Origin: Croceicoccus mobilis
GTDB taxonomy: Bacteria > Pseudomonadota > Alphaproteobacteria > Sphingomonadales > Sphingomonadaceae
Length of the DNA: 64,000 bases
NCBI RefSeq assembly: GCF_001661965.1
Contig: NZ_LYWZ01000020.1
Span: forward strand, 186,001-250,000
Reading direction: 5' to 3'
The position numbers were made by a program, and so were the translations under genes. Shown here one piece after another: positions 7,680 to 64,000 of this stretch; the stretch's first letter is position 1, and each line of letters begins with the position of its first letter. The notes under the pieces were generated by a model. The model worked only from the letters and a program-made list of their open reading frames with translations. It was not told where the DNA came from and did not search any database.

Positions 7680-7681
7680 CG

Positions 7682-9052: not shown

Positions 9053-9110
9053 TTCGCGGGTGCGTTAATCCCATGGCGTGCGATGCGAAAGGGCAAAATG
9101 ATCCGGCAAA

Positions 9111-10654: not shown

Positions 10655-10702
10655 CTGTGTACCCCTTTCCCTCGCTGTCCTGCCTCTCTAAAGCATGGCG
10701 CG

Positions 10703-11614
10703 ATGAATGAAACCGCATCCCTTACGCCCGACAGCCAGCACAAGGGGCTGGTGGCGCTGCTTCCCGCTTCGGCACGGCCCTATGCTCTGCTGGGGCGTTT
10801 CGACCGGCCCATCGGCTGGTGGCTGCTGTTCTGGCCCTGCGTGGCGGGGCTGTGGGCCGGCGGCGCGCTGGAACGCTGGGGCATGGCGCTATTGCTGTTG
10901 GTCGGCGCCATCGCGATGCGGGCGGCGGGCTGTGTCTATAACGACATCCTCGACCGTGACCTTGATCGAAAGGTTGCGCGCACGGCGTCGCGGCCACTGG
11001 CCAGCGGTCAGGTGTCGCTGAAGAAAGCGTGGATCTGGCTGCTTTCGCTATGTCTCGTCGGGCTGGTGGTGCTGCTGCAATTGCGATGGGAAGCGCAGCT
11101 GGTGGCGCTGGGCTCGATCCTGCCGGTCGCGCTTTATCCGCTGATGAAGCGCATCACATGGTGGCCGCAGGCGTGGCTGGGGCTGGTGTTCAGCTGGGGC
11201 GCGCTGGTCGGCTGGGTCGAGGCGACGGGCGAATTCTCGCCCGTGCTGGCGGCGATGTATGGCGGCTGCATCTTCTGGGTCATCGGTTATGACACGATCT
11301 ATGCGGTGCAGGACATGGAGGACGACGCGCTGGTCGGCGTGCGTTCCAGTGCGCTGGCCATGGGTAGTCATGTAAAGGCGGGTGTGGCGCTATGTTATGC
11401 GCTGGCGTTGACTGGCTGGGGGCTGGGCATCTGGTGGCTGCGGCCCGACTGGATCGCGCTTCTGACGCTGGTGCCGGTGGGGTTGCATCTTGCCTGGCAG
11501 GTCGCGACGCTCGACCGGGCCGATGGCGCGGGCGCATTGGCGCGTTTTCGCTCGAACCGGCTTGCCGGGCTGCTGATGGCGCTCGCATGGCTGGTCGTCG
11601 GCAATGCTGGCTGA
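10703..11614 (+). CDS. ubiA: 4-hydroxybenzoate polyprenyltransferase
   Basis: Integral membrane prenyltransferase that attaches the polyprenyl tail to 4-hydroxybenzoate in ubiquinone synthesis. 303 residues from ATG 10703. The first Asp-rich motif is NDILDRDLD at residues 80-88 and the second is YDTIYAVQDMEDD near residue 205. Eight or nine hydrophobic helices are readable (WWLLFWPCVAGLWAG, MALLLLVGAIAMRAAG and so on). It is divergent from the methyltransferase-rsmE pair with a 48-nt gap. Confidence 0.93.
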   Translation: MNETASLTPDSQHKGLVALLPASARPYALLGRFDRPIGWWLLFWPCVAGLWAGGALERWGMALLLLVGAIAMRAAGCVYNDILDRDLDRKVARTASRPLASGQVSLKKAWIWLLSLCLVGLVVLLQLRWEAQLVALGSILPVALYPLMKRITWWPQAWLGLVFSWGALVGWVEATGEFSPVLAAMYGGCIFWVIGYDTIYAVQDMEDDALVGVRSSALAMGSHVKAGVALCYALALTGWGLGIWWLRPDWIALLTLVPVGLHLAWQVATLDRADGAGALARFRSNRLAGLLMALAWLVVGNAG

Positions 11615-49213: not shown

Positions 49214-49227
49214 CGGGAAGGTAGTTG

Positions 49228-49773
49228 ATGGCATCGATTGCGAATGGTCACGTTGTGGACGTGGTGAAATACAATTCCGTTGCCCGCATGCTTCACTGGA
49301 TCATCGCGATCCTTATCATTGGCAATATCGCGGGTGGATTGCTGCACGATCCGCTTGAGGACATCGTGAGCCTGATGCCGACGCACAAGGCGATCGGCAT
49401 CACGGTTCTCGTCCTCTCCATCGTGCGGGTGATCTGGCGCTTTTCCACCAGCCACCCGCCATTGCCTGCCAGCGTCACCGCGTTTCAGCGCGTCGCGTCG
49501 AAGATCGTGCAATTCGTGCTGTATCTGCTGATGTTCATCATGCCGCTTTCGGGCTGGGTCATGACATCGGCGGGGACCTATCCGCTTACCTGGTTCGGGC
49601 TGTTCTCCATCCCGAAATTCGACGTGACGAAAAGTGATCCCATCTATGGGATCAGCCATGAAGCGCATGAATTGCTGGGCTGGGTGATGCTGGCGTTGGT
49701 GATCGGCCATGTCGCGGCGGCGCTTTATCATCATTTCGTGATGAAGGACGCGGTGCTGAAGCAGATGGCCTGA
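49228..49773 (+). CDS. Cytochrome b561
   Basis: 181 residues from ATG 49228 (an adjacent TTG at 49225 is in frame). Four membrane helices carry the family's haem-ligand histidines (ARMLHW, PTHKAIG, GISHEAHELLGW, IGHVAAALYHHF). Membrane di-haem protein that can move electrons between periplasmic carriers and quinone. It lies 14 nt after the TonB receptor gene, so it is probably co-transcribed and may link the periplasmic oxidation module to the quinone pool. Confidence 0.9.
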   Translation: MASIANGHVVDVVKYNSVARMLHWIIAILIIGNIAGGLLHDPLEDIVSLMPTHKAIGITVLVLSIVRVIWRFSTSHPPLPASVTAFQRVASKIVQFVLYLLMFIMPLSGWVMTSAGTYPLTWFGLFSIPKFDVTKSDPIYGISHEAHELLGWVMLALVIGHVAAALYHHFVMKDAVLKQMA

Positions 49774-49779
49774 GCCAGC

Positions 49780-50793
49780 TTACAGGCGGGGCAGCAGCTC
49801 CGCCTCCAGCGCCGGGTAGAAGTGCGAGACGCTGCGCTGCAGCTCATAGCGGGCGAGCTTTACGCCTGCGAAGCGGCCGGGGATGGCGATATTGCCCGCC
49901 TCGGCCATGTCGAGCCCTTGTGCCACCGCATCATGCAGCGCCCCATCCAGCCAGCCGAGCCAATCCGCCGTCTGCGCGATGGCATCCTGCCCGCCAGTAT
50001 CCAGCCCGCCAGTATCCAGCCCGCCAGTATTTAGCCCGCCAGTATCCAGCGGGCCGTGGCCGGGCAGCAGGATGTTATGCGGCACCGCAGCCAGTTCGGT
50101 CAGCGATTTCTGCCATGCGGCGATATCGGCGTGGGGCGTTGCGGGGGCGCGGTTGTTAAAGACGAGATCGCCCGCGATCAGCGTGCCTGTCGCGTGATCG
50201 AGCAATGCCAGATCGCCGCCGCTGTGACCCTGCAGCGCCAGCAGGCGCAGCTTGCGCCCGCCATAGGTGACGTCTCCCGGCTTTACATCGCCATTGGGCA
50301 GGACGAGCGCCGTGCCCTTCATCCAGTCGGCAAGGATCCGGTACATGCCATCGGCAAAGCCTTCGCCTTCATCCACCAGTTCCCGGCGTGTTTCGGGCAG
50401 GGCGTGGAGGAGTTCGGGCGCAAAACCGGCCGCGCCCAATGCGTGATCGGGATGCAGATGGCTGACATAGACACGCGTGACCGGCTTGCCGGTCACCTCT
50501 TCCGCCAATGCCGTGAGTGCCAGCGCATATTCGCGTGAGGGACCGGGATCGAACAGGATCGTCCCTTCATCGGTTGCGATAAAGGCGCTGTTGGCGATCG
50601 CGCCGCCATTGGTCATGGCGATCGCTTCATCGGCGCCGCGCACCATCCAGATACCGTCCGCGATGCTTTCGGCGCGCGGGTGATAGCCAGTCGCGAATTG
50701 CTGGGCCAGCGCCGTGGCGGCAAGCCCGTGACCGGCAACCGCCACAGGCAAGCTGGCCGCAGCCGCCAACAGGGCGCGCCGGGAAATCGTCAC
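49780..50793 (-). CDS. Quinoprotein relay system zinc metallohydrolase (MBL fold)
   Basis: 337 residues. Twin-arginine leader TISRRALLAAAASLPVAVAGHGLA. Metallo-beta-lactamase fold with metal motif SHLHPDH near residue 110, GHSGGD, GDLVFNN and LLPGHGPL. It matches the SoxH-like hydrolases that accompany PQQ dehydrogenases and SoxYZ-like carriers. An in-frame tandem repeat (units LDTGG/LNTGG) sits right after the GHGP metal motif. Not PqqB, which has no leader. It ends 6 nt from the convergent b561 gene; the SoxYZ-like gene is just upstream. Confidence 0.87.
   Translation of the reverse strand: MTISRRALLAAAASLPVAVAGHGLAATALAQQFATGYHPRAESIADGIWMVRGADEAIAMTNGGAIANSAFIATDEGTILFDPGPSREYALALTALAEEVTGKPVTRVYVSHLHPDHALGAAGFAPELLHALPETRRELVDEGEGFADGMYRILADWMKGTALVLPNGDVKPGDVTYGGRKLRLLALQGHSGGDLALLDHATGTLIAGDLVFNNRAPATPHADIAAWQKSLTELAAVPHNILLPGHGPLDTGGLNTGGLDTGGLDTGGQDAIAQTADWLGWLDGALHDAVAQGLDMAEAGNIAIPGRFAGVKLARYELQRSVSHFYPALEAELLPRL
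49991..50050. repeat. 15-bp tandem repeat, four copies, inside the metallohydrolase gene
   Basis: Unit CCGCCAGTATCCAGC; three perfect copies and one (third) with CC changed to TT. Encodes repeats of LDTGG on the minus strand. In-frame, so copy number changes alter a surface loop without a frameshift. Confidence 0.95.
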
Positions 50794-50800
50794 CGCCGCG

Positions 50801-51598
50801 TCACCGTGCCTGCGCCAACAGGTCGACGCCTGCGCGCCGCGAAACCGATCCGTCGAACTCCAGCCCGGCCGTGTCGCGCGCGCTGACTGCGATCGGGGCC
50901 TCGCCCGCGTCCTTGACGATCATGGTGAAGACAGGGTCCTCTGCCACTGCGCCGAACACTGACATCTCGGCCAGCTTCGTGCCGTCGGCCGCGGTGACCG
51001 AAAGGGTGTCGATGTTATAGGCCGAGATGTTCTCGACGAGGCCCGTGTCCATCGGATGGCGAAAGCTGACGCGGATGCGGGTGTCGTCATGGTCGGGCCA
51101 TGCCGCACCGCGCATTTCGCCCAGATGCTGCGCCCAGTCACCCTTTACACGGCTGACCGGCGGTGCCGAGCAGCCGCCGCCTGCCGCATCGACCCAGACG
51201 CCCGATACATGCCAGCGGCCATCACCGGTCTGCACCGCCGCGCGCACCGGCGTGCGCTGGTCGAGCTTTATGCGCGTGGCGACAAAGGCGCGCGCATTTA
51301 TCGGGCGATAGTCGATGGCGACCGGAATGGGATTGAGATCGGCAAAGATCACGATCCGTTTCACATCGGGAAGTGCGCTGGCGTCGACCGTTACGGGAAA
51401 GACGTGCTGGTTTTCTGCCAGTTGCGGCACGATCACCTGCACCGCGTCGTCGAACACGACCTCGGCGTCGCCCAGTATCTCGTTTGCGCGATAATCCCAC
51501 ATCGGTGAATCGAGCGGGTCTGCCGGATATTCTCCGGCCCATGCCGCGCCGGACCAGACCAGCACGGATGCAAGGCAGCAGATCATCGATTTCTTCAT
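50801..51598 (-). CDS. Quinoprotein dehydrogenase-associated SoxYZ-like carrier
   Basis: 265 residues, signal peptide about 1-21 (AAWAGE). A fused SoxY-like domain (about 25-155), ending in a GGGCSAP carrier-cysteine motif, is joined to a SoxZ-like domain (about 165-265). In the Sox system SoxY holds substrate on its C-terminal Cys. This fused relative occurs with PQQ dehydrogenases and presumably carries a covalently bound intermediate to the metallohydrolase encoded 7 nt downstream. Confidence 0.87.
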   Translation of the reverse strand: MKKSMICCLASVLVWSGAAWAGEYPADPLDSPMWDYRANEILGDAEVVFDDAVQVIVPQLAENQHVFPVTVDASALPDVKRIVIFADLNPIPVAIDYRPINARAFVATRIKLDQRTPVRAAVQTGDGRWHVSGVWVDAAGGGCSAPPVSRVKGDWAQHLGEMRGAAWPDHDDTRIRVSFRHPMDTGLVENISAYNIDTLSVTAADGTKLAEMSVFGAVAEDPVFTMIVKDAGEAPIAVSARDTAGLEFDGSVSRRAGVDLLAQAR

Positions 51599-51636
51599 AC
51601 CAAAGAAGAATGTAAGTCAGCGATGCACGCGGTCAT

Positions 51637-51651
51637 ATTGGACCATAGGCC
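51637..51651 (+). promoter_or_regulatory. Quinoprotein-cluster motif between SoxYZ-like and CW-motif genes
   Basis: ATTGGACCATAGGCC, related to ATTGgACyTTGGtCC. It lies in the divergent promoter region, 38 nt from the SoxYZ-like start and 33 nt from the GTG start of the next gene. Confidence 0.5.
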
Positions 51652-51684
51652 CAGATCTGGGGTGGGCAAAAGGGGAGAAGCCAG

Positions 51685-52326
51685 GTGGCAGCAAGGCGCG
51701 TCGGCCAATCCATGCTTGCCCCTTGCATTGCTCTGGTGCTGGCAGGTCCCGCAATGGTCGGCTGCACCATGGAACGCGCCATGCCATCCCCTACGAAAAC
51801 GGCTGATGCCGGTCAGGCTATCTCTGCCGATTTCAACGCTGAGGGCTATCGCACCCGCCGCTTTCGCGCGCCGATCGACCGCAGCCCGGACCCTGCGCGG
51901 CAGATGCCGCTATCGGCGGCGCTGATGGTGCAGCCGGGGCGTGACGCGCTTTTCATCGATGTCCTGCCGGTGGAAAGCGGGGTGCGCGATCCTGAAACGG
52001 GCATCTGGCGCGTGGCATCGCCGCACAGCACCATCCCCGGATCGCTATGGCATCCCGAAACCGGCCGCGCTCCGCCCGATCCGCTGCTGTGGCGCGGGCT
52101 GAGGGATGAGATCGCGAAGGCGCGGATGGAACGCCCCGATCTGCCGGTCGTGCTGTTTTGCCGCACCGATTGCTGGATGGGATGGAACGCGGCGCGCCGG
52201 CTCGCCCGCGAAGGGGTGGAGGATGTGCACTGGCTGGCCGAAGGGGTGGAGGGCTGGCACGCTGCCGGTCGCGCCCTCGAACCCGCGACGCCCCGGACAA
52301 TCGCGCCGGATTTGACGAAACGATAA
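51685..52326 (+). CDS. PQQ-dependent catabolism-associated C-x3-C-W motif protein (rhodanese-like)
   Basis: 213 residues from GTG 51685 with GGGGAG upstream. The leader ends in a possible lipobox (AMVGC). Rhodanese-like domain with loop LFCRTDCWMGWNAARRLAREG near residue 152, the double-cysteine/Trp motif that defines the family found with quinoprotein catabolism genes. The cysteines suggest sulfur transfer or disulfide chemistry tied to the SoxYZ-like carrier. The EthD-like gene starts 20 nt downstream. Confidence 0.85.
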   Translation: MAARRVGQSMLAPCIALVLAGPAMVGCTMERAMPSPTKTADAGQAISADFNAEGYRTRRFRAPIDRSPDPARQMPLSAALMVQPGRDALFIDVLPVESGVRDPETGIWRVASPHSTIPGSLWHPETGRAPPDPLLWRGLRDEIAKARMERPDLPVVLFCRTDCWMGWNAARRLAREGVEDVHWLAEGVEGWHAAGRALEPATPRTIAPDLTKR

Positions 52327-52346
52327 TCAGAACAAGGAGAAACAGG

Positions 52347-52640
52347 ATGCCTGCATTGATCGTGGCCTATCCGCGCAAGGCCGATACGCAGTTCGACGAG
52401 AGTTATTATGCCGGCGCGCATACCGATCTCGTCAAGCAGACTTGGGGGCCGCACGGGCTGACGGGGGCCGAGATCCATTTCCCGGCCGATAGCGCTCAAC
52501 CCTATGCCGCGATGGTCGTGCTGGACTTTTCCGGGGCAGAGGGGATCGATGCCGCTCTTGGCGATCCCGCCACGCCTGCCGTGCTGGCCGATATTCCCAA
52601 TTTCACCAATGCCGAACCGCTGATCTATCGGGCGCGTTGA
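52347..52640 (+). CDS. EthD-family small protein
   Basis: 97 residues with AAGGAGA upstream of ATG. The ferredoxin-like dimeric alpha/beta barrel pattern (MPALIVAYPRKADTQFDESYYAGAHTDLVKQTWGPHGL, AMVVLDFSG) matches the EthD family. Members appear in many catabolic clusters; reaction unknown. It ends at a strong terminator. Confidence 0.8.
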   Translation: MPALIVAYPRKADTQFDESYYAGAHTDLVKQTWGPHGLTGAEIHFPADSAQPYAAMVVLDFSGAEGIDAALGDPATPAVLADIPNFTNAEPLIYRAR

Positions 52641-52656
52641 GGGGATGCAGAAACGC

Positions 52657-52693
52657 AAAAGGGGCGCGGCCCGATGGCACGCGCCCCTTTTTT
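52657..52693. terminator. Bidirectional intrinsic terminator
   Basis: AAAAGGGGCGCG (52657-52668), 11-nt loop, CGCGCCCCTTTTTT. It serves both the EthD-like gene (plus) and the convergent cytochrome c gene (minus). Confidence 0.92.
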
Positions 52694-52742
52694 GATCGGA
52701 TAACGTCCGGCACCCCGCACTGCGGGATGCCGGCGCCTCCCG

Positions 52743-53363
52743 TCACTTGTTGTTCTTGAGGAACTCGATGATTTCCTGCCGCTGTTCGGGGTTCTTCAGG
52801 CCGGGGAAGCTCATGCGGTTGCCCGGCACCATCTTGCGCGGGTTCTCAAGCCAGCTGTCGAGGGTGGCCTCGTCCCAGGTGATGCCCGATTCCTTGAGCG
52901 CGCTGGAGAAGTTGAAATCGGCCGGATGCTCGCCCGCCTTGGTGCCATAGACGCCATGGAGATTGGGGCCGAGCTTGTTCGCGCCGCCCTTTTCCCAGGT
53001 GTGGCATACCGCGCAGCGGCTCTTGTAGATCTGCGGCGGCGAGGACGCGACGGCGGCGGCCACCTTTACCGGTTCGGGCTTGGGCTCGGGTGCCGGTTCG
53101 GCCTTTGCCACCGGCTTGGGCGCGGGTTCCGGTTCGGGTGCCGGCTCGGGTTCTTCCGCGGCTTCCTCGACGATGGCCTCTTCAGTCGCTTCAGTCGCTT
53201 CAGCCTCTGCGGCCGCATCGGCGACTTCCACGGTTTCCGTGCCGGTGTCGGCAGCCGCTTCTGCGGTGTCGGTGGCATCGGCTTCCTCAGGCGAGCCGGA
53301 GCAGGCGGCAAGGGAGATCGTGCAGGTCAGCGCGAGCAGGCTGGAGGTCAGGGCGGGGCGCAT
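52743..53363 (-). CDS. Lipoprotein cytochrome c with long charged linker
   Basis: 206 residues from ATG 53363 with GAGAGGA upstream. Lipobox SLAACSG near residue 20. An Ala/Glu/Thr-rich then Pro/Glu/Lys-rich linker (about 25-100, with repeated EPAPEPEP units) precedes a C-terminal class I cytochrome c of about 100 residues with haem site CAVCH and axial Met in PGNRMSFPG. Mitochondrial-like cytochrome c on a membrane tether, probably shuttling electrons from periplasmic quinoproteins to an oxidase. A cluster motif lies about 70 bp upstream. Confidence 0.9.
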   Translation of the reverse strand: MRPALTSSLLALTCTISLAACSGSPEEADATDTAEAAADTGTETVEVADAAAEAEATEATEEAIVEEAAEEPEPAPEPEPAPKPVAKAEPAPEPKPEPVKVAAAVASSPPQIYKSRCAVCHTWEKGGANKLGPNLHGVYGTKAGEHPADFNFSSALKESGITWDEATLDSWLENPRKMVPGNRMSFPGLKNPEQRQEIIEFLKNNK

Positions 53364-53430
53364 AAAAGTCCTCTCGAAACAGCGTCGTGTGATTTGCGGC
53401 GACATTGACATGGCACCGCACGACAAGGCT

Positions 53431-53445
53431 ATTGCACTTTGGTCC
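53431..53445 (+). promoter_or_regulatory. Quinoprotein-cluster motif before the lipoprotein cytochrome c gene
   Basis: ATTGCACTTTGGTCC, the copy closest to the consensus. It lies 68 bp upstream of the cytochrome start (minus strand). Confidence 0.6.
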
Positions 53446-53557
53446 GCCGCGATGAAGGTGCTTTTATGTTTTGAGCGGTGACCTGCCGATCCGGGCAGAA
53501 CGATCCGCCTTCTGGAGGCGCAGGGCCAAAGCGCTGCAAGCTGCATGTCGGGATAAA

Positions 53558-53603
53558 TGGTGCCGACTATAGGATTCGACCCCGTGGCCCCCTGATTACA
53601 AAA
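53558..53603 (-). other. Decayed 3' half of a tRNA-Thr (probable attachment-site relic)
   Basis: On the minus strand it reads TTTTGTAATCAGG (anticodon loop with TGT and the 3' anticodon stem), a GGGCC variable region, ACGGG/GTCGAAT/CCTAT and AGTCGGCACCA. This is the 3' half of a tRNA-Thr(TGT) ending in CCA, with a changed T loop and a mismatched T stem. No 5' half precedes it. Integrative elements using tRNA genes leave such 3' fragments at one end. Confidence 0.7.
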
Positions 53604-54079
53604 TGGTCTTTGGCTCTAAGCATCTTTACCCAAACCGACGGTATTCGTCGCATGGATCGCCGCATGCCAAGCTTTGAGCCTTTGCTAGTCGTTGCGGCCT
53701 GTTGCAGTCGATAGCACGCAATTGTCTGCTGCTGGAACCCCGTTGGGACCCCACTCGGTTTGCGCACTTATGCTATCTCTGATTATTTGAAAGCTATCGT
53801 AAGGAAACTGTTCGCCGCAAAGTGCCTTGCTTTCCGGCTTTAGCGACCTTGCTGTTCTTGAAGCACTTTAAGTGCCAACCCTGATGCAGGTATGGGGCAG
53901 CTGTCCATTGAGTGCCAACAGCTGCGATTGGTGCGCACAGTGCTGGTTGGCAGTGATGCACGTGGTTTCGGTTATGCGCGGATGATTGCCAAATCGGCAA
54001 AAAGGCGACATTGGCGCGCACTAGCTAGCAGCTTCAGGCAGTTATATCCGCTCTTGAGCTTGCAAACCGTCGATGGTCC
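53604..54079. other. Gene-free stretch at the island edge
   Basis: No reading frame here resembles a protein I can name. Base composition is more AT-rich than the region to the left. It lies between the tRNA-Thr fragment and the nitrile hydratase beta stop codon and probably holds decayed mobile-element sequence. I see no clear integrase remnant. Confidence 0.5.
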
Positions 54080-54769
54080 CTAGCCCTTACAGGTCAGATA
54101 GTCGTCTAACAGGTCTACCTCGAAAAAATCGTTGCGATGTCCATCGACGCCCCACAACTCTACACCATCGAAACTTACAGTATACGCATGCTGGACGCGC
54201 CCGCGCTCTGACAACGGTCGTGCGTCGGGTAGGTGATGGGGGCCAAGGTCGTCTGTGATGGTTCCGGTTTTCCCTCTAACATAGCCGGGACAGCGCGTAT
54301 GTCCGACCGGGTTCATCGCGATGACGGTGACCACATCGCCCACTTTGTGTCGAGCAGGTGCCGCTTCCTCCGGCCGAGGCCAGCGGGTCTTAACGGACCG
54401 GATCGCTTCTTCTGCTGTCACAGCTGCTGGAACAGCCCGTGACTGAGCGGCTATCCGCTCCGGTTTGACGTATAAGGCTGCTTCGATCTCTCGTGGGGTC
54501 AGTATGCCCGCGGCATACATGGTCTCAAGGATGACGATTAGGTGCTTGGCCCAATAACCCTCGGAAAACGCAATGGCAGGCGTCATCTCCTCCAGCTTCT
54601 TGCGGATGTCGATCGGTGTGATGAAATCCTTTTTGCTCTTAGATGAATAGCCCCATATGAGCGGCTCCATGCAATGCATGTGCAGTTCCCAGGGTTCGAT
54701 TTCCCGATCGTCGGGCACATTGGGCAGCGTCGAGCCGATCCGAAGGCCTGCCACGTCCTGAACATTCAT
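54080..54769 (-). CDS. nthB: Nitrile hydratase beta subunit
   Basis: Second subunit of the nitrile-to-amide hydratase. 229 residues. The helical N-terminal domain is WELHMHCMEPLIWGYSSKS...TPAIAFSEGYWAKHLIVILETMYAAGILTPREIEAAL. The C-terminal SH3-like barrel is HKVGDVVTVIAMNPVGHTRCPGYVRGKTGTITDDLGPHHLPD...AYTVSFDGVELWGVDGHRNDFFEVDLLDDYL. No export signal of its own. Its start overlaps the alpha stop by 4 nt, giving tight alpha-beta coupling. Thiocyanate hydrolase subunits are related, but the amidase and accessory genes nearby favour nitrile hydratase. Confidence 0.9.
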   Translation of the reverse strand: MNVQDVAGLRIGSTLPNVPDDREIEPWELHMHCMEPLIWGYSSKSKKDFITPIDIRKKLEEMTPAIAFSEGYWAKHLIVILETMYAAGILTPREIEAALYVKPERIAAQSRAVPAAVTAEEAIRSVKTRWPRPEEAAPARHKVGDVVTVIAMNPVGHTRCPGYVRGKTGTITDDLGPHHLPDARPLSERGRVQHAYTVSFDGVELWGVDGHRNDFFEVDLLDDYLTCKG

Positions 54770-55539
54770 GCCTGGACCTCCGGCGCTGTCCCCGATTGCG
54801 GGGCAAGGATCTCCGTTCCGATCATCGCGTTTCGCGTCACGATCGTTTCGAGTTGCTCTATGCTCCAGCCTTCGGTTCCTGCGGGACGTTCGGGCAGGAC
54901 CATGTAGCGCTGGTCGGCGATGCTGTCCCAGACGTGCACTTTCACGTCGTCTGACAGTTCGATACCGAATTCCTTGAGTACACCGCGCGGGTCGACGGCG
55001 ACGCGCGACCTATACTCAGGCGATTTGTACCAGCTCGGCGGCAGGCCGAGGACCGGCCACGGATAGCAGGAGCACAACGTACACACTACCAGATGGTGGT
55101 CCGTTGGCGAATTGGCTACGATCTTGATCATTGAAGTCAGCACGCCGCCAATCCCCATCGACCAGAGAGCGTCCGTTCCGTTTTCAAGCAATTCGGCGCA
55201 GAATTCTGGATCGGTCCAAGCGCGCGCCACGACTTTCGCGCCAATATGGGGGCCCACATCACGGCCATAATGCTCGACCAATGCGGCCAGCGCCGCAGGA
55301 TCGATGATGCCCTTGCCAATCAGTACACTTTCCAGCGCCATCGCGGTTAGAGCCGCGTCCGAGGGAACGTGAGAGTGGTCATGCGCATGATTGTGATCGT
55401 CGTGACTATGCCTGCTCGTCTGCGCCTTGACCGGTGAGGTGGCGAGGGCACCTGCCCCAGCGCCGGCACCTGCCGCTACGAAGCCTCTGCGATCGATACT
55501 GAGGCCGGCGGGCCGGGACTTGTCATCTGGATGGGGCAT
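54766..55539 (-). CDS. nthA: Cobalt-type nitrile hydratase alpha subunit with twin-arginine leader
   Basis: Metal-bearing subunit. 257 residues from ATG 55539. The catalytic claw is CTLCSC at 153-158; Thr in second place marks the cobalt type (iron enzymes have Ser). GLPPSWYKSPEYRSRVAVDPRGVLKEFG follows, as in the family. Unusually the protein starts with a Tat-like leader: DRRGF (RR at 17-18), an Ala/Gly-rich hydrophobic run to about 34 and a PVKAQ cleavage site. A His/Asp-rich stretch (HSHDDHNHAHDHSHV, 44-58) comes next. Most nitrile hydratases are cytoplasmic. Last two genes of the sigma-FecR-alpha-beta arm. Confidence 0.9.
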   Translation of the reverse strand: MPHPDDKSRPAGLSIDRRGFVAAGAGAGAGALATSPVKAQTSRHSHDDHNHAHDHSHVPSDAALTAMALESVLIGKGIIDPAALAALVEHYGRDVGPHIGAKVVARAWTDPEFCAELLENGTDALWSMGIGGVLTSMIKIVANSPTDHHLVVCTLCSCYPWPVLGLPPSWYKSPEYRSRVAVDPRGVLKEFGIELSDDVKVHVWDSIADQRYMVLPERPAGTEGWSIEQLETIVTRNAMIGTEILAPQSGTAPEVQA

Positions 55540-55582
55540 CGGAAATAGAGCTCCGCTTGTGGTGATGGGACAGAGGCCCGGC

Positions 55583-56581
55583 CTAGGGGGCGGCCTGTCC
55601 ATCGGTGATGTGGATGGTTCTGCCCTCTCGGTTCACCTGGAGGTCCAGAATGCTGGCCACTGAATTGGTGAATGCTTCAGGGTCATCGAGCGCGAAATAG
55701 CCCGCAATCTTGCGGTCGCCGATTTCAGCGCCGTCAAGAATAATGGGGGTGTTGGTATAGCGGGAGAATTCCGCCACGGCCTCGCGGAGCGGCGTGCCGG
55801 TAAATGCGATCTTGCCTTCACGCCAAGCCAGATCATTGTTGATCAGGCTCGGATTAAAATGGCTGACCTGTAGGAGGCGACCGCCCTCTTCTGCTTCGAC
55901 CCGCATGTTTTCACGCAGCTGAAATGGCGCGAACGTGCTTTGATCGTTCGCAAGCTCGACCACACCTTCCTCGACCACGACATGAAACTTGTCCGCCCCC
56001 GTATTGCGGACGGCAAACGCAGTGCCGACCGCCCGCACGTTTGCAAACGGGGTGGAAACGATGAACGGTCGCTCCTTGTTCTTGGCGACTTTGAAGAAAG
56101 CCTCGCCCGATGTCAGTCGGATCGACCGCTCCGAATCGCTATACGCCACCTCGAGGCGGCTTTGCGTGTTGAGATCGACGGCAGAGCCATCTTCGAGGAT
56201 GATCCTGCGCATTTCGCCCTTGCCGGTTGTGTAGACGGTCGGCGCAGGCACAAAGAAATTGCCGAAGCTGAAGGCCCAGATAAGCACCGAAGCGACCAAT
56301 GCCATGCCGACCGCGCGTTTCCAGTACCGAGAGGCAATGGGTGCGGATTCGTAAAATTGCTCATCAGGTAAATGCGCATCGTCATTGTCCGCAACGGGAT
56401 CGCTGCTCAAACGGGTTGCCTCGACGATTGCGCAGGCCCTGAGCAGCGCGCCTTCATGGCGGGGGCTTTGGCTTAACCAGCTTTCGAATTCCTGTTCGAC
56501 GTCAGGATCGAGCGGGCCGCAATCGAGCCGGACCGCCCAACGGGCAGCTTCGGCATCAATTTCTTGAGATGTATCTTTCAT
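55583..56581 (-). CDS. FecR-type anti-sigma factor
   Basis: 332 residues from ATG 56581. A cytoplasmic N-terminal domain (DUF4880-like: EAARWAVRLDCGPLDPDVEQEFESWLSQSPRHEGAL) precedes one membrane helix (AVGMALVASVLIWAFSFGNFF, about 88-110), the periplasmic FecR domain (RIILEDGSAVDLNTQSRLEVAY...VSTPFANVRAVGTAFAVR) and a C-terminal DUF4974/STN-like domain. It receives the signal from the receptor's STN domain and controls the sigma factor. Its start lies 26 nt inside the sigma gene. Nitrile hydratase alpha follows 43 nt later. Confidence 0.92.
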   Translation of the reverse strand: MKDTSQEIDAEAARWAVRLDCGPLDPDVEQEFESWLSQSPRHEGALLRACAIVEATRLSSDPVADNDDAHLPDEQFYESAPIASRYWKRAVGMALVASVLIWAFSFGNFFVPAPTVYTTGKGEMRRIILEDGSAVDLNTQSRLEVAYSDSERSIRLTSGEAFFKVAKNKERPFIVSTPFANVRAVGTAFAVRNTGADKFHVVVEEGVVELANDQSTFAPFQLRENMRVEAEEGGRLLQVSHFNPSLINNDLAWREGKIAFTGTPLREAVAEFSRYTNTPIILDGAEIGDRKIAGYFALDDPEAFTNSVASILDLQVNREGRTIHITDGQAAP

Positions 56582-57152
56582 CTTGCTCTTCGGCTTTTCT
56601 CGTCCTGCTCCCGGTAGATGTCTTGAGGGCGCTTTTTCCTCCACGCCCGAATATTTGCATCAATTCCCGGATACCCTTGATCACATGTTTTTCGACCGTG
56701 CTTTCGGCGATCTGGAGGCGTGCGGCGATCTCCTTTTGAGAAAAGCCATGGACCTTGCGCAGCACGAAAACCTCGCGGCATTTGGGGGAAAGCTGTTCGA
56801 TCGCATCCATGACGAGATCGAGCTCCTGACGATCCTGAACCCTCTTGTCGGGCAAAGGGTCAGTGCTTGCGATCTCGAGTTCGTCAATGACGGTCAGATG
56901 ATCGATCGGAACCGCCTTGGCCCTGCGCAACTGCTGCAGCATGACCGAATTCGCGACTGAATAGAAATAGCTGCGTGCAGAGCGGATTTCATCCACATTC
57001 TCTAGTCGGCCCAGTACGACATAGGCCTCGTGGATGATGTCATCCACGTCGAGATTAGGCGGCACCCGCCGTTCAAGCCAACGGCGCACCGACGCTTCAT
57101 GGGGTAAAATGTTTCGCGCCAGCCAGGCGGCGCGAATTCTCCTGTCGTCCAT
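56556..57152 (-). CDS. ECF sigma factor (FecI type)
   Basis: 198 residues. Sigma region 2 is VDDIIHEAYVVLGRLENVDEIRSARSYFYSVANSVMLQQLRRAKA (about 36-80). Region 4 is LSPKCREVFVLRKVHGFSQKEIAARLQIAESTVEKHVIKGIRELM (about 120-165). A basic C-terminal tail follows. It pairs with the FecR gene it overlaps and probably transcribes both divergent arms of the nitrile island when the receptor is occupied. Confidence 0.9.
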   Translation of the reverse strand: MDDRRIRAAWLARNILPHEASVRRWLERRVPPNLDVDDIIHEAYVVLGRLENVDEIRSARSYFYSVANSVMLQQLRRAKAVPIDHLTVIDELEIASTDPLPDKRVQDRQELDLVMDAIEQLSPKCREVFVLRKVHGFSQKEIAARLQIAESTVEKHVIKGIRELMQIFGRGGKSALKTSTGSRTRKAEEQDERYISRN

Positions 57153-57442
57153 GCTTTAAGCAAAAACGAAATCTCGCACATGCACAAGAGGCTTTCGTAT
57201 ACAATTTTTCTCGAAGCCGAAAAATTTTTGCTGCAATTGTATGGAGGAAGGGAGGGTCTGCTGCATCTACCCAGTAAGATGACCGTTTTCTGTATGCATA
57301 GCGTGCGTTCGCTTTGAATTTTTTCCTACTGAATTCAAGATCTACTCTTGATCAGGTTTGTAGAACATTTTTTTCTAAAGAAAAAAATTCATTCGGTCAT
57401 TTTTTATTGAAAAATTCTAGAGTAAATTAAGGGGCTAGAATA
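57153..57442. promoter_or_regulatory. AT-rich divergent promoter region of the nitrile island
   Basis: 290 bp without a gene between the sigma factor and the TonB receptor, much richer in A+T than the rest of the window. It contains a perfect palindrome, ATTTTTTTC (57367-57375), spacer TAAA, GAAAAAAAT (57380-57388), 55 nt before the receptor start. Promoters for both arms must lie here; I cannot place -35/-10 boxes with confidence. Confidence 0.6.
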
Positions 57443-60411
57443 GTGGCGGGACAATTCATCAAGCAGGCTTCGTTAATTGGATGTTGCGCCGCAGCAATTG
57501 CTGTATCTTCAAGTGCGGCTAATGCGCAGACGCGGGTTTTCGATTTGCCGCCTGCCAATGCTGTCGAGACAATTCCTGCATTCGCCCAGCAAAGCGGTCT
57601 CCAGATCCTGGCTCCTGCGGATCGCATCGTCGGTGTTAGAACACCGGCGATAAAGGGGGCCTATGATGCCCGCGCGGCCTTGCGAAAGCTCATTGCGAAT
57701 ACAGGTCTGGTGATCAGTTCAGACACTGGCTCCACCATCATCCTCAAATGGCAGGAGCCGAAGCGTGTGTCTGCCACGACAGCAGCGCCTTTGTCTGCAG
57801 CGAAGAGTGTCACGAGCACGGCTGCGGTCCAGCCTGTCGCCGAGGCTGCTGCGCTTGAGCCACCATTGGAAGACATCGTCGTTCTGGGCAGCCGTATCCG
57901 CGGCGCGGCACCGGTGGGCTCGACCGTGCTTGATCTCGATCGCGCTGACATCGAGGAACTTCCTGCTGTCACGACAGGTGACATTATTCAGACGATGCCT
58001 TCGGTCATCAATCTCGGGAACAGCGAATCCTCTCGCGCTGCAGGTGGTGGTGGTAACTTCACCTTCGCGCAGGGCATCAACATCCATGGCGTAGGCAATG
58101 GCGCCACTCTAATGTTGATCGACGGCCGACGAGTCGTGCCGCAGGGCACCATTGGCTCGATCAACGATTCCTCTCTCATTCCTGCAAACGCGCTAGAGCG
58201 TGTGGAGATCGTGCCTGATGGCGCGTCTGCCCTGTACGGATCGGATGCCATGGCCGGTGTGGCCAATCTGGTAATTAGACGTGACTATGATGGCCTTGAA
58301 CTCACTGGGCGGCAGGGTTTTGCCGACGATTATTCCGAAACGCAGCTCGGCGCTTCGTTCGGAGCGGATTGGAGCAGCGGCAAGTTCGGACTCGTTTACA
58401 ACTACTCCTATCATACTGATCTCAACGCGTCGGACCGCGGTTATGCGACGGCAGATCTGTCGGGGCGGGGTGGTGATGATTACCGCGGGAGCCAGTGTTC
58501 CCCCCCGACCCTTGTTGCGGGCGGCGTCACCTATGCACTGCCCAGTGGTGGCCTTAACGAGGCCAATGCCGGTGATCTTGTTGCCGGTTCGATCAACAGC
58601 TGTGACATTTATGCCAATGCCGACTTGATCCCGGAAGTGGAGCGGCACAATGTCGTGGCGACCTTCGACCAGGACATCACCGATACGCTTTCCGTCGCGG
58701 CGACAGGGTTCTACGCAAAGCGTAGCGTATACATGACTGCGGGTCTGACGACTGCGACGTTCACGGTGCCTGATACGAATGCATATTACGTGTCCTCGAT
58801 CTCTGGACCACAGACAATCCAGTATGCCTTTGCCGATATGGCGACGAATGACACTGATGCCTCTAACGAATTCTATCAGGGGACCGTTGAAGCTGACTGG
58901 GTTCTGCCGTTTGACTGGCGCATCAACGGCGCCTTCACTTATGGCTACAGCGAAGATGCGCGGGCCATTACGCGCGGCCTCTACAATTCGGCGTTCACCG
59001 CAGCTTTGGCGAGTTCCGATCCGGCAACCGCATTCAATCCCTATGGCGGTGCCAACGATCCGGCCTTGCTCGACTCTCTAGCGCAAAGCGTTGGCGGCTA
59101 TTTCACCGGCGACAGCAAGCAGTGGGTGGTCGACCTCGGCGCTGATGGTCCGCTATTCGATCTACCCGGCGGCACCGTCAGACTGGCCGCTGGCTACCAG
59201 CACCTGAATGTCCGCTCGCGGATTTTCGTGCGGATCGGAACCAACGATTCCTATTTTATTAGCACCGCTGCCGATCATACCCGCAAGGTGGATTCAGGCT
59301 ACGCCGAACTTCTGGTGCCGATTTTCGGTCCAGGCAATGCGATTCCGGGTTTCCAGCGCCTTGATCTCAATATCGCGGGTCGCTTCGACAGCTACAACGA
59401 CTCCGGCTCCACTACGAATCCGAAAATCGGCGTGACCTGGGAGCCGGTAAGCGGACTGTCGCTGCATGGTAGCTATGGCAAATCATTCAGAGCGCCGAAT
59501 ATCGCTTCGGCCTCGCGTCAGGCGGCCTGCAGGTGGGGCAGTTCGTCGATCCGCTAGCAGGCGGTGCAATCGTCGACGGGATTCTTAACAATGGGGGCCG
59601 TCCTGGTCTGGAACCCGAAACAGCGACCACCTTCTCGTTTGGAGCGGATTTCCGGACCGGTGAAACCGTGCGTTTCAGTGGCTCAGTCAATTACTTCAAC
59701 ATCAAGTACAAGGACATTGTCACCGGAATTGGTACGAATTATCAGGTGCTGAACCAGGCTGATCTTTACGATGGTCTCGGCTTAATCGTCCGCGACCCTT
59801 CTGATGAGTATCTCGACCAGTTGTTCGCCTCGTTCCCGTTCCTGGGAAGCGTCCTGCCAGAGGATATAGCGGTCTATGTCGACGGGCGGTCCATCAACAT
59901 GTCGACCAAGGATATCGACGGCATTGATTTTTCAGCGGATGTCATGATCCCGTTGGATGGATCCGATCTGCAAATCGGAGTTAATGGCCTCTTTCTCCTG
60001 ACCTACGACACCATGGTAACACCCAATGCTCCAGTCGCGGACCAGTTGAATACCATTCTTTATCCTGTGGCCTTTACTGCGCGGCAGTTCACGCGCTGGT
60101 CCAATGATACATTCAATGTCGGCGCCTATCTGAACTACACCGGCTCCTACACCAACAATCTGGTGTCGCCGTCGGAAAAGGTAGGCGACTTCATGACTGT
60201 CGACGCCCATTTTGGTGTCGAGCTTGAGGATCTGATCCCGGGCCCAATCGGACGTGATTTCAGCCTGTCGTTCGACGTCAAGAACCTGTTCGACGCAGAC
60301 CCGCCGTTCGTCAACGTGGCACCTTCGTCGCTGGCTGGTGGCGGCTACGATGCCAGCATGGCCAGCCCGCTGGGTCGGATCGTGATGATCGGATTCAAGA
60401 AAACCTTCTGA
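57443..60411 (+). pseudogene. FecA-type TonB-dependent receptor with STN domain, frameshifted
   Basis: GTG start with AAGGGG upstream. Frame one (57443-59557, 704 residues) has a signal peptide (about 1-29), an STN signalling domain (RVFDLPPANAVETIPAFAQQSGLQIL, about 33-105), a linker, plug (VLGSRIRGAAPVG, MLIDGRRVVPQGTIGSIND, GASALYGSDAMAGVANLV) and much of the barrel to YGKSFRAPN. It then goes out of frame and stops. The rest of the barrel (EPETATTFSFGADFR... to IGFKKTF) continues in the next frame to 60411. The shift lies between about 59500 and 59530 and equals loss of one base or gain of two. Both halves are otherwise well conserved, so it is recent or a sequencing error. It would signal to the FecR/sigma pair. 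Confidence 0.85.
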
Positions 60412-60426
60412 CGGAGAGTTTCCCTC

Positions 60427-60454
60427 GCGGGCGGGGCTGCAATGCCTCGCCCGC
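60427..60454 (+). terminator. Hairpin between TonB receptor and amidase genes
   Basis: GCGGGCGGGGC (60427-60437), loop TGCAAT, GCCTCGCCCGC (60444-60454); 11-bp stem with one G-T pair, 16 nt after the receptor stop. No T run. It may lower rather than stop transcription into the amidase gene. Confidence 0.5.
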
Positions 60455-60499
60455 ATATGGGTTACCTATTGTCTGCAACCAAATGCGAGGGGTTTAGTC

Positions 60500-62044
60500 T
60501 TGTCCATTGCCAAAGCGCCATCCGCCGATTTTTCGGCAAGTCGCCGTCGGGTTCTCAAGCTGACCGCAGCCGCTGCGGTTGGAATTGCATCAGCACCGAC
60601 GATGGCTGCTCCCATCACCAGTCCCATTCGCAAGCTTGATCCGAATTCTCCTGATCCTGTCGACTGGACTATGCGCAAGGCAGCCGCGATGCTCGGCGAT
60701 GGACAGATTTCCAGCATCGAGCTGACTGAGGCCATTCTAGCCCGGATCCAGCGAATTAATCCGGACTATAATGCGTTTCTGACGGTGACCGGTGACGTGG
60801 CTCTTGTTTCGGCGCGGCAGGCTGATGCGAATTTTGCCAAGGGCATCAGGCTGAGCGCGATGCAAGGCATTCCGTTTGGCCTCAAGGACAATATCGACAC
60901 TGGTGGTATTCGCACCACTGTCGGCATGAAACAGTTCTTTGATCGTGTTCCCGACACGGATGCGACGGTCGCGGCACGGTTGAAGTCGGGCGGCGCGGTG
61001 CTGGTGGGCAAGAACCACCTCGCAGAAGCGGCGACCACCGTGCACCATCCGATCTATGGCAGGGCACCCAAGAGCCCATGGCGTGATGGCATGTGGACGG
61101 GTACCTCGTCGTCGGGTTCGGGTGTAGCCGTTGCAACTGGAATGTGTTTCGGCAGCCTCGGAACCGATACGGGCGGTTCGATCCGTCTTCCGGCAATGTC
61201 GAATGGTATTACCGGGCTCAAGCCGACGTGGGAGCGAGTGAGCGCCGCCGGCATTTTTCCACTTGTGCGTATGAGCGATGCCGTAGGCCCCCTGACCCGA
61301 GATGCCTGGGGTGCAGCCGCGATGATGTCGGTAATCGCGGGTGAAGACGATCGTGACATGATCACCTCGATCCGTCCGGTTCCCGATTACCTTGCCAGTC
61401 TCGAGGCGCCGCTGGATGCGGGCAATATTCGCATCGGCATCGACAGGGAGTTCAATACCGCAAATGTCACGCCCGATGTGCTTGCCTCGATGAGCCACGT
61501 GGAAGAGGTCCTGCGCGAACTCGGATTTACAATCGTCGAGTTCAAGATGCCCGATGTTTCGCGCTTCGAATTTGGCAAGTCCAAACCGACGGCGCATGTC
61601 GCTTATAGTCACCGGGACATCTATCCTGAACAGGCGGCGGATTACACCGAAGGCTTTGCCAAGGGGCTAGAAGCAGGCCGGAACGCCGATCCCCTGGACA
61701 TGGCCGCCGCCGAACTTCGCCGAGCGGGCTTCAAGGGCGAGATGGCGCGCACCATGCGCGAACTCGACCTGATCCTTTCGCCCGTCGCGCCGAGGCCTAC
61801 GCCCAACTGGAACGATGTCATGTCGATGATGGGCAGTGGCACTTACGGCAAGTTCCTACCCTATCTTGGCTATGTGAACGTAGCAGGTCTTCCCTCGATT
61901 GCCTTCCCTGCAGGGTTCAGTTCGGAAGGAACACCCTTGTCGGCACAGTTGATCGGCCGGCCATTCGGCGAGGACCTGTTGCTCAATTCCGTAGACGCCT
62001 TTCAACAGGTGACCGACTGGCATTTACATACCGCGGTGATTTGA
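60500..62044 (+). CDS. Amidase (amidase-signature family) with twin-arginine leader
   Basis: 514 residues from TTG 60500 with GAGGGG upstream. Tat leader SRRRVLKLTAAAAVGIASAPTMA (Arg 15-17, cleavage near residue 37). Amidase-signature core: Lys129 in GIPFGLKDNID, cis-Ser region TSSSGSGVAVATG (203-204) and nucleophile Ser227 in GTDTGGSIRLPA. C-terminal LDLILSPVAPRPTPNW and GLPSIAFPAGF. It hydrolyses amides to acids and so can finish the pathway opened by nitrile hydratase. The accessory gene starts 1 nt after its stop. Confidence 0.92.
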   Translation: MSIAKAPSADFSASRRRVLKLTAAAAVGIASAPTMAAPITSPIRKLDPNSPDPVDWTMRKAAAMLGDGQISSIELTEAILARIQRINPDYNAFLTVTGDVALVSARQADANFAKGIRLSAMQGIPFGLKDNIDTGGIRTTVGMKQFFDRVPDTDATVAARLKSGGAVLVGKNHLAEAATTVHHPIYGRAPKSPWRDGMWTGTSSSGSGVAVATGMCFGSLGTDTGGSIRLPAMSNGITGLKPTWERVSAAGIFPLVRMSDAVGPLTRDAWGAAAMMSVIAGEDDRDMITSIRPVPDYLASLEAPLDAGNIRIGIDREFNTANVTPDVLASMSHVEEVLRELGFTIVEFKMPDVSRFEFGKSKPTAHVAYSHRDIYPEQAADYTEGFAKGLEAGRNADPLDMAAAELRRAGFKGEMARTMRELDLILSPVAPRPTPNWNDVMSMMGSGTYGKFLPYLGYVNVAGLPSIAFPAGFSSEGTPLSAQLIGRPFGEDLLLNSVDAFQQVTDWHLHTAVI

Positions 62045-62045
62045 G

Positions 62046-62444
62046 ATGACATCGATGCAAAACGGTAAAGTACAGATGGAATACTCTACCGCTACGCCGT
62101 TCCGGTTGGGCGAGGCTAGGAATGATCTGCCGAATTTTGACGAGCCTTGGCAGGCCTATGTCTTTTCGCTGACGGTGGCGTTGGTGGAATCGGGAAAGTT
62201 TGACTGGCCGGAATGGATATCCAGCTTTGGCTGCTTGCGCAGTCCCGAGGTGCTCGGTTCAGACGAAGAGGAGCCAGGGGCGTATTACGAGCACTGGATA
62301 CAGAGCTTGTGCGGCATCCTTCAGGAAAAAGGCGTGGCTTCTATCGCCGAGGTGACAAGCTGTGCGGAACGCTGGCGTCGTGCCTATCTGGCTACTCCGC
62401 ATGGACATCCGGTCAAGCTGGAAGCCGGTAAACCAATTTTCTGA
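62046..62444 (+). CDS. Nitrile hydratase accessory protein (cobalt activator type)
   Basis: 132 residues. It resembles the N-terminal domain of the beta subunit (NFDEPWQAYVFSLTVALVESGKFDWPEWISSFG, YYEHWIQSLCGILQEKGVASIAEVTSCAERWRRAYLATPHGHPVKL), the pattern of the p14K/NhlE-type activators that swap with beta to deliver cobalt to alpha. No leader, so it acts in the cytoplasm. It follows the amidase by 1 nt. Confidence 0.87.
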   Translation: MTSMQNGKVQMEYSTATPFRLGEARNDLPNFDEPWQAYVFSLTVALVESGKFDWPEWISSFGCLRSPEVLGSDEEEPGAYYEHWIQSLCGILQEKGVASIAEVTSCAERWRRAYLATPHGHPVKLEAGKPIF

Positions 62445-62471
62445 GCCTGGCACTTCTGAAGGGAAAAGCAA

Positions 62472-63149
62472 ATGCATATCGAACCGGGCGTGGTCGTAGG
62501 GGCAAAGGCGATACTTGGATTGGTCACCGCGGCGGCGGCTGTCTTCAAGACTGGACGGGCATTCCGTAATGACCGGCACCGCGATGCTCTCGCAACTATC
62601 GCGATGCGCAGTCTGGTAGCAACCATGATCGTGATCGCGATTTTCCAGTTCCTTCCGCATCCGCCCGTCGGCGTTTCCGAAGTGCATTTGATCCTGGGAT
62701 CCACCCTGTTGCTGACTTTGGGTGTGGCACCGGCGGCCATCGGCCTTGGGGTGGGCCTGCTGTTGCAAGGGATACTCTTCGCGCCCGCGGATCTGCCGCA
62801 ATTCGGCATGAATCTGACCACGTTGCTCCTTCCGCTCTTCGCAGTCGATGCACTCGCGCAGAGAATTGTTCCCATCGAGACCGCTTATGTGGATTTGACC
62901 TACAGCCAGGTCTTGCGCCTCTCAGCCACATATCAGGCCGGGATCGTAGGCTGGGTCGCTTTCTGGGTCCTTTACGGAGAAGGCGTATCCGTTGGCAGCC
63001 TCCAGTCCCTTGCTTCCTTTGCAGCAGTGTATGCGAGTATCATCGTGATTGAGCCGATCATCGATCTCGCAGTTCTCGCGGCGGCACGCAGCGGTAAGGG
63101 GAGTCTGATTGAGACGGTCTTCGACGCCAAGGTATTTGCGCCCAGTTGA
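62472..63149 (+). CDS. CbiM-family cobalt/nickel permease
   Basis: 225 residues, six or so membrane helices. It begins [12 protein letters not shown], where Met1-His2 form the metal-binding start typical of CbiM/NikM-type permeases. [39 protein letters not shown] is a family core. The usual energising CbiQ/CbiO partners are not seen. As the last gene of the arm it most likely supplies cobalt for the nitrile hydratase. The IS remnant begins immediately after its stop codon. Confidence 0.82.
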
Positions 63150-63278
63150 AGCTACTGTCAGCGGATCCTGCGGATCCTGCGGACACTCGAGGCCGAGAAC
63201 GCGAAGCTCAAGCGGCTTCTGGCCGATGCGATGCTGGACCAGGCTGCCTTGAAGGATCTTCTGGCAAAAAAGTTGTGA
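63150..63278 (+). pseudogene. IS3-family orfA, C-terminal fragment
   Basis: Only the leucine-zipper-like end remains: [35 protein letters not shown], ending TGA 63276-63278. The helix-turn-helix part is gone, so transposition by this copy is unlikely. Confidence 0.85.
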
Positions 63279-64000
63279 CGCCCGCCGCCAAGCGGGAAGC
63301 TGTCGCTCATCTCCAGCTATGTCGCGGGATGAGCGAACGGCGGGCGTGCCGTGTCATCGATGCCAATCGCAAGAGCATGCGTTACCGTTCGACCCGGGAC
63401 GATGATGCCGGTCTGCGCGAGAAGCTGCGCCAACTGGCCAACCAGCGTCGCCGGTTCGGCTATCGGCGTTTGCATATCCTGCTGCGCCGCGAGGGGATCA
63501 TGATCAACCGGAAGAAGACCCAGCGGCTTTATCGCGAGGAAGGCTTGGCGGTCAGGCGACGACGGGGCCGCAGGCGTGCTGTTGGCACAAGAGCACCTGC
63601 TACGGTTCTGGCTCTGCCGAACCAGCGCTGGAGCCTCGACTTCGTCCATGATCAGATAGCCTCGGGCAGACGGTTCCGGATCCTCAACGTGGTCGATGGC
63701 GTGACGAGGGAGTGCTTGGCCGCACTGCCGGACACCTCGATCTCGGGGCACCGTGTCGTACGCGAGTTGACCCGGCTGATTGCCCAGCGGGGCAAGCCCG
63801 GCATGATCGTCAGCGATAATGAGACTGAGCTCACCAGCAACGCCGTGCTGGCCTGGTGCGGCGAGATCGGCATTGAGTGGCATTACATCGCTCCGGGAAG
63901 GCCGATGCAGAATGGCTATGTCGAGAGCTTCAACGGCCGCATGCGCGACGAGCTTCTCAACGAGACCCTGTTCCTCAGCATGGCACATGCACGAGTCGAG
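63275..64000 (+). CDS. IS3-family orfB transposase, C-terminus outside the window
   Basis: GTG 63275 overlaps the orfA stop by 4 nt (GTGA). 242 residues are visible: HTH_21 region ([34 protein letters not shown]) and the rve integrase core with catalytic Asp in WSLDFVHD, Asp in [12 protein letters not shown] and Glu in [15 protein letters not shown]. The second motif has Glu where Gly is usual (SDNGTE). Reading frame intact to the edge. Confidence 0.9.

What the first reader, a model, noticed from the sequence alone, without database searches (positions are those of the whole stretch)
54080..63149. Candidate new system: surface-signalled, exported nitrile hydratase-amidase pathway
Seen: one divergent island encodes an ECF sigma, FecR, nitrile hydratase alpha/beta, a FecA-type TonB receptor with STN domain, an amidase, a nitrile hydratase activator and a CbiM-type cobalt permease. 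Alpha and amidase both carry twin-arginine leaders. Known: nitrile hydratases are normally cytoplasmic and are found beside amidase and activator genes, and STN-FecR-FecI sets sense a ligand at the cell surface. Inference: a nitrile (or nitrile-bearing chelate) is bound by the receptor, imported to the periplasm, hydrated and hydrolysed there, and its presence switches on the genes.
Basis: partly seen in the sequence, partly recalled or inferred. Interest (0 to 1): 0.93.

Follow-up and report, generated by a model that had tools for sequence, protein, structure and literature searches.

The report
Exported nitrile-degrading enzymes with surface sensor
A marine bacterium carries an apparently imported gene block that seems to send a cobalt enzyme for breaking down nitriles, and a partner amidase, across the inner membrane under control of a surface sensor; such enzymes are normally kept inside the cell, so where and on what they act becomes a testable question.

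Summary
The island is real: FecI, FecR, cobalt-type nitrile hydratase (NHase) alpha and beta on one strand; STN TonB receptor, amidase, NHase activator and CbiM-like permease on the other. G+C is low, an IS3 element adjoins, and FecR and NHase alpha are the genome's only ones. Alpha and amidase carry Tat-type leaders; beta has none and would have to travel with alpha. New here: 6 of 197 other distinct alphas read also carry a Tat leader, five in the order of a Woeseiaceae genome and one in an acidobacterial MAG, so exported NHase looks like a recurring, apparently undescribed variant. STN-covering relatives of the receptor lie in lasso-peptide loci next to a peptidase in 8 of 8 annotated cases inspected, of 15 listed. 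Best model: that sense-import-cleave plan with exported amidase and NHase in place of the peptidase. Export, activity and ligand are untested.

The parts
54080..54769 (-). NHase beta subunit, no leader; ATGA overlap with alpha
   Evidence: Pfam PF02211/PF21006; R56, Y72, R159 kept; A67 where 169 of 169 other rows have Y, H76 where 160 of 169 have W, also A7 and I24
54766..55602 (-). NHase alpha subunit, CTLCSC metal site; likely start ATG at 55539 with a GGAG site
   Evidence: TIGR01323 above cut-off; cysteines 174, 177, 179 kept; starts
55423..55539 (-). Tat-type leader of alpha: MPHPDDKSRPAGLSIDRRGFVAAGAGAGAGALATSPVKA, then Q
   Evidence: sequence; comparable leaders on L064, L109, L211, L214, L217, L241
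55583..56644 (-). FecR sensor/anti-sigma with DUF4880; one hydrophobic span by eye
   Evidence: PF04773 87.1 bits, PF16220; only FecR match in the genome
56556..57152 (-). FecI-type ECF sigma factor
   Evidence: TIGR02937 and sigma-70 regions 2 and 4
57153..57442 (.). A+T-rich divergent gap, presumed control region
   Evidence: coordinates; no sigma-70-like site listed inside it
57443..59557 (+). STN TonB-dependent receptor, N-terminal part, ends at a stop after a frame slip
   Evidence: Plug 64.4 bits, STN 27.4 bits; compared homologues continuous
59533..60411 (+). C-terminal barrel part of the receptor in another frame
   Evidence: PF00593; frames shown apart
60500..62044 (+). amidase-signature amidase; Tat-type leader at about 60500-60607 (SRRRVLKLTAAAAVGIASAPTMA)
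   Evidence: PF01425 304.9 bits; TTG start with GAGGGG site
62046..62444 (+). NHase activator/accessory protein, no leader
   Evidence: TIGR03889 62.4 bits vs 46
62472..63149 (+). CbiM-like permease of the NHase-linked kind
   Evidence: PF01891; 51-56% identical genes after NHase activators in L073, L089, L116, L121
63150..64000 (+). IS3-family element: tail of OrfA, then OrfB; 5' end seems missing; runs past the window
   Evidence: NF033516; OrfA tail by eye; 78-88% identity to plasmid records in the 8 rows listed of 22

Best explanation
A horizontally acquired island joins a FecI-FecR-STN-receptor sensing and uptake set, of the kind found in alphaproteobacterial lasso-peptide loci, to a cobalt NHase-amidase set. 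CbiM brings in cobalt, the activator loads it into alpha in the cytoplasm, folded alpha-beta leaves through Tat on alpha's leader with beta riding along, and the amidase leaves on its own leader. In the periplasm they turn a compound brought in by the receptor from nitrile to amide to acid plus ammonia, while receptor occupancy signals through FecR to FecI to switch on both operons. Shown: genes, order, leaders, TatC, uniqueness in the genome, leaders on other alphas. Inferred: export, co-export, cobalt use, induction, ligand class.
For: Families; no start for alpha that skips the leader and spares the core; TatC; Tat-type leaders on six other alphas; metal cysteines and R56, Y72, R159 of beta kept; sole FecR and sole NHase alpha of the genome, side by side; low-G+C block; CbiM like those next to other NHases; receptor relatives covering STN in lasso-peptide loci next to a peptidase, 8 of 8 annotated ones inspected, with signal-like N-termini on the two peptidases read.
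Against: Receptor frameshifted in this assembly. Full arrangement seen only here. 23 of 23 amidase ORFs near other NHases, repeats included, lack a Tat-like leader, and so do three well-covered plasmid amidase relatives. Window alpha is a long branch, which fits new function or decay. Beta misses its equivalog cut-off and four near-invariant residues. Receptor is only 26-37% identical to the lasso-locus receptors and closer (42-46%) to receptors aligned only from the plug onward. No ligand evidence.
Confidence: 0.5

Rival explanations
1. The NHase set is an ordinary cytoplasmic nitrile or aldoxime-nitrile pathway whose leaders do little; sensor and receptor are neighbours by recombination.
For: The best-listed plasmid alpha (59.8%) sits in an aldoxime dehydratase-amidase-nthA-accessory-cobalt transporter cluster. 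Amidase, alpha, beta, activator and CbiM without leader or FecIR occur together in four loci (L073, L089, L116, L121).
Against: Alpha cannot start after its leader without losing part of the core; leaders recur on six other alphas; alpha and beta follow FecR on the same strand at most 43 nt away.
Confidence: 0.2
2. The receptor imports a cobalt chelate or corrinoid that feeds cobalt to the NHase; the sensed signal is metal supply, not a nitrile.
For: Best NCBIfam match of the receptor is the B12 receptor model, though far below cut-off (71.5 vs 599.7 bits); a CbiM-like permease is in the same gene set.
Against: Receptor relatives inspected lie beside peptidases or other hydrolases; no Rfam family, so no cobalamin riboswitch, at gathering score in 49000-64000; NHase-CbiM sets without such a receptor exist.
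Confidence: 0.15
3. The island is decaying after transfer: the sensor is dead by frameshift and the enzymes drift.
For: Receptor frame slip, long alpha branch, IS3 element at the edge.
Against: The other genes are open and show three-base periodicity in G+C (alpha and FecR computed from shifted starts); catalytic residues kept. A draft assembly error is possible: the slip region includes a run of four G.
Confidence: 0.15

Closest known systems
Alphaproteobacterial isopeptidase-type lasso-peptide loci (Caulobacter, Novosphingobium, Polymorphobacter, Sphingopyxis, Asticcacaulis plasmids)
   Same: FecI-FecR-STN TonB receptor with an adjacent peptidase; receptor 33-36% identical over 91-94% of the query in the four best inspected and 26-28% in the other four
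   Different: No precursor, B2, asparagine synthetase or isopeptidase among the island proteins; divergent instead of collinear; Tat-led amidase and NHase instead
Cobalt NHase gene sets with amidase, activator and CbiM-like transporter
   Same: Same enzyme set; alpha 56-60% identical
   Different: In the four loci scanned alpha and amidase have no Tat-like leader and no FecIR or receptor hit
FecIRA-type surface signalling (described in PMC3621798, passages read)
   Same: ECF sigma, FecR, STN receptor
   Different: Would control exported catabolic enzymes; receptor frameshifted here
Tat hitchhiker enzymes such as PaoABC (PMC4273604, search listing with start of abstract only)
   Same: Several subunits moved on one Tat leader; cofactor enzyme (recalled)
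   Different: Not described for NHase in the listings and passages seen

Membership tests
Cobalt-type nitrile hydratase | alpha family score and CTLCSC metal site | tested here: met
   TIGR01323 above cut-off; cysteines invariant in 195 other rows and kept; that CTLCSC marks the cobalt type is recalled
Cobalt-type nitrile hydratase | beta family score and residues | tested here: inconclusive
   TIGR03888 104.1 vs 152.2 bits, Pfam beta C-domain met, R56, Y72, R159 kept, Y67A and W76H changed; role of these residues recalled
Cobalt-type nitrile hydratase | nitrile hydration activity | not testable with these tools
   no assay
Tat substrate | RR motif, uncharged hydrophobic region, A-x-A-like site, Tat machinery | tested here: met
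   sequence; TatC 6.8e-73; no signal-peptide predictor was at hand
Tat substrate | actual Tat-dependent export | not testable with these tools
   no fractionation
FecIRA-type surface signalling | FecI, FecR and STN receptor together | tested here: met
   STN 27.4 bits, just under cut-off 28.4
FecIRA-type surface signalling | uninterrupted receptor gene | tested here: not met
   frame slip; error or mutation not decided
Lasso-peptide locus | B2 protease, asparagine synthetase, precursor, isopeptidase | tested here: not met
   none among the island proteins scanned; a short precursor ORF was not specifically sought

The most novel reading that the evidence does not exclude
Periplasmic nitrile hydratases exist as a recurring class: Tat leaders on alpha arose or spread in at least three groups of bacteria, with beta and cobalt carried along, and here the exported NHase and amidase were wired into a lasso-locus-type sense-import-cleave circuit for an imported nitrile-bearing natural product.
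Probability: 0.4. Interest if true: 0.82.

Novelty: new variant of a known kind. Interest (0 to 1): 0.62.

Why it matters
The NHases that I know of act in the cytoplasm (recalled). A Tat-led alpha with a leaderless beta and a leaderless cobalt activator is a natural test of whether a metal-loaded alpha-beta enzyme is co-exported. If true, some nitriles, perhaps natural products that do not cross the inner membrane, are processed in the periplasm, and a Tat-exported NHase could serve as a biocatalyst. It also suggests that lasso-locus receptors with their FecIR pair are a re-usable front end for other exported hydrolases.

Tried and rejected
The single-protein scan of genome contigs found no relative. 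The most similar alpha segment seen is 62% identical (L092). No closer orthologue turned up in samples of 396 order, 385 class, 14 genus and 397 family genomes (samples overlap). Of the class-level matches only 81 were read for leaders (29 loci and 52 fetched); of the 41 matches listed, 33 were read (30 loci, plus L241, L251 and L210/L250). Some rows are cut at contig ends before any leader could show (for example L225, L231, L233). Leader flags on L026, L028, L065, L069, L084, L096/L161 and L099 were dropped by eye as lying upstream of the likely start. A single origin of the leaders is neither shown nor rejected (5 changes; AU p 0.132). Three plasmid amidase relatives covering 91-93% of the query show no Tat leader; others of like coverage were not read. 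Amidase search in 269 family genomes: 2 other matches at E 1e-75, 34-39% identical. Receptor search in 269 family genomes: 8 others at E 1e-125, 43-46%. Both scored only the first few candidates of each genome. No Rfam hit; promoter and terminator scans gave fewer sites than shuffles; the left intergenic stretch matched no plasmid; no convincing repeats frame the island at the settings used. Structure prediction was not used. The empty site in congeners was not tested: the last genome search went to TatC.

The profile screen of neighbours covered 155 loci: some cut short, some the same place twice, L287 added because of its FecR. Besides FecR in L152 and L287 it flagged ECF-sigma-like ORFs in L092, L128 and L136 and a receptor-like ORF in L057. 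It is weak for TonB receptors: it missed receptor-like ORFs in L246 and L287.
Full report
What is there. The window lies on contig C13 of a 4.2 Mb draft genome in 32 contigs. Its genus is probably Croceicoccus: contig C2 of congener G779 has 761,621 bases, the length of Croceicoccus marinus plasmid NZ_CP019603, with a receptor match at nearly the same place. From 54080 to 63149 two divergent gene sets face away from a 290-base A+T-rich gap. Leftward: FecI, FecR, NHase alpha, NHase beta. Rightward: STN TonB receptor, amidase, NHase activator, CbiM-like permease, then an IS3 element that by eye lacks its 5' part. G+C is 0.543-0.592 in the five 2-kb windows from 54001 to 64000 against 0.607-0.688 in the 27 windows before. 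With sporadic occurrence (1 of 14 genus genomes, the own one) this points to horizontal gain. NHase alpha and FecR are each single in the genome by Pfam model.

Enzymes. Alpha scores above the NHase equivalog cut-off and keeps CTLCSC; its best PDB match is a cobalt NHase. In an alignment of 196 alphas, the window included, it keeps 51 of the 54 columns that are at least 93% conserved in the others (N170H, V202A and E230D differ). Beta is divergent: among 170 rows, some the same place twice, it keeps R56, Y72 and R159 but has A67 where 169 of 169 others have Y, H76 where 160 of 169 have W, A7 for G (169 of 169) and I24 for F (159 of 169). I recall that residues near 67 and 76 line the substrate pocket, so an unusual substrate is possible. 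The amidase is of the amidase-signature family; its best PDB match is GatA.

Leaders. Alpha's leader (SIDRRGFVAAGAGAGAGALATSPVKA-Q) is followed by the His-rich stretch and core seen in ordinary NHases. Alpha has no start codon between leader and core. The amidase leader reads SRRRVLKLTAAAAVGIASAPTMA. TatC is present. Beta and activator have no leader. In the first sets read (182 alpha ORFs, repeats included) two other convincing leaders appeared: L064 from an acidobacterial MAG and L109 from a Woeseiaceae MAG. A search of 196 genomes of the order of L109's genome found NHase alpha in 37. Of its 41 listed matches 33 were read, and L211, L214, L217 and L241 carry leaders too: with L109, five leadered alphas in four genomes. 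In all, 6 of 197 distinct alphas other than the window's carry one, after two of eight flags were dropped by eye. The fraction is biased, because part of the set was fetched with a leadered query, and some rows are cut before a leader could show. The closest sisters L212 and L213 keep VADDK, and L215 VADHK, directly before the core and lack the leader that follows VADDK in L211, so the leader seems gained or lost as a block. On both trees the leader needs 5 changes; one origin is not rejected (AU p 0.132).

Sensor and receptor. Of the plasmid matches listed, 15 align from before residue 60 and so cover STN. Eight of them were inspected with annotation (H60, H63, H64, H65, H67, H68, H70, H72): 8 of 8 lie in lasso-peptide loci next to a peptidase. 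FecI and FecR are in the stretch shown in 7 of 8 (not H70; in H72 an insertion sequence lies between them and the receptor). H66 has no annotation; six were not inspected. Congener G778 has the same plan: FecI-FecR-STN receptor-S9 peptidase-asparagine synthase-transglutaminase-like protein (L054). The review PMC9266682 (passages read) describes TonB transporters and sigma/anti-sigma pairs in isopeptidase clusters. Receptors that align only from the plug onward are closer (42-46%). Of five such loci looked at, four (L060, L061, L265, L282) hold a CocE or X-Pro-type hydrolase, next to the receptor or, in L060, 3.5 kb away, and L264 has an unidentified ORF with a signal-like N-terminus; signal-like N-termini were read on L060, L061 and L265. 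So the receptor family often partners hydrolases that look exported, which fits the model. The window receptor itself is broken by a frame slip in a loop that varies among homologues; the draft cannot tell error from mutation.

Linkage elsewhere. Among 155 NHase loci screened with profiles (limits given under Tried and rejected), FecR occurs in two: G105 (L152) and G672 (L287), with leaderless alphas and other layouts. The complete arrangement was seen only in this genome. CbiM-like genes 51-56% identical to the window's follow NHase activators in Marinobacterium, Xanthomonas, Halotalea and Cypionkella loci, and the best-listed plasmid alpha lies in an aldoxime dehydratase-amidase-NHase-cobalt transporter cluster. 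The enzyme half therefore looks taken from such a set; this is inference.

Literature. Full-text searches for NHase with twin-arginine, periplasm, Tat plus signal peptide, TonB-dependent, Tat signal, FecI, and four phrases for an exported NHase (20 of 62 papers listed, 15 of 17) showed no exported NHase in the listings, or in the passages read in PMC11928666, PMC5744179, PMC6504805, PMC3621798, PMC2667541 and PMC7689651. The library lacks most subscription papers.

Verdict. Ordinary parts, unusual joining. My estimates: alpha and amidase exported about 0.8, control of the hydratase by FecI about 0.7, a nitrile as the receptor's ligand about 0.35.

Noticed in passing
window 49780-53546: A metallo-beta-lactamase-fold protein with a Tat-like leader (by eye) next to a SoxY-SoxZ fusion protein, near a rhodanese-domain protein and a cytochrome c: possibly a sulfur or quinoprotein-linked redox set.
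   Followed up: partly
L246 (G1167), 2-6730: A TonB receptor-like ORF and an amidohydrolase-like ORF (both by eye), an amidase and NHase genes lie side by side in a genome of the Woeseiaceae order whose alpha has no leader.
   Followed up: no
L287, 1364-10476: NHase activator-beta-alpha genes between a FecI-FecR-STN receptor set and a second, orphan FecR on the other strand from alpha.
   Followed up: partly
L054 (congener G778), 1706-10819: A lasso-peptide-type locus with FecI-FecR-STN receptor and S9 peptidase.
   Followed up: partly
L212, L213, L215 against L109, L211: Leaderless sister NHase alphas that keep nearly the same first residues (VADDK, VADDK, VADHK) but lack the whole Tat leader: a natural presence/absence pair for testing export.
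   Followed up: partly
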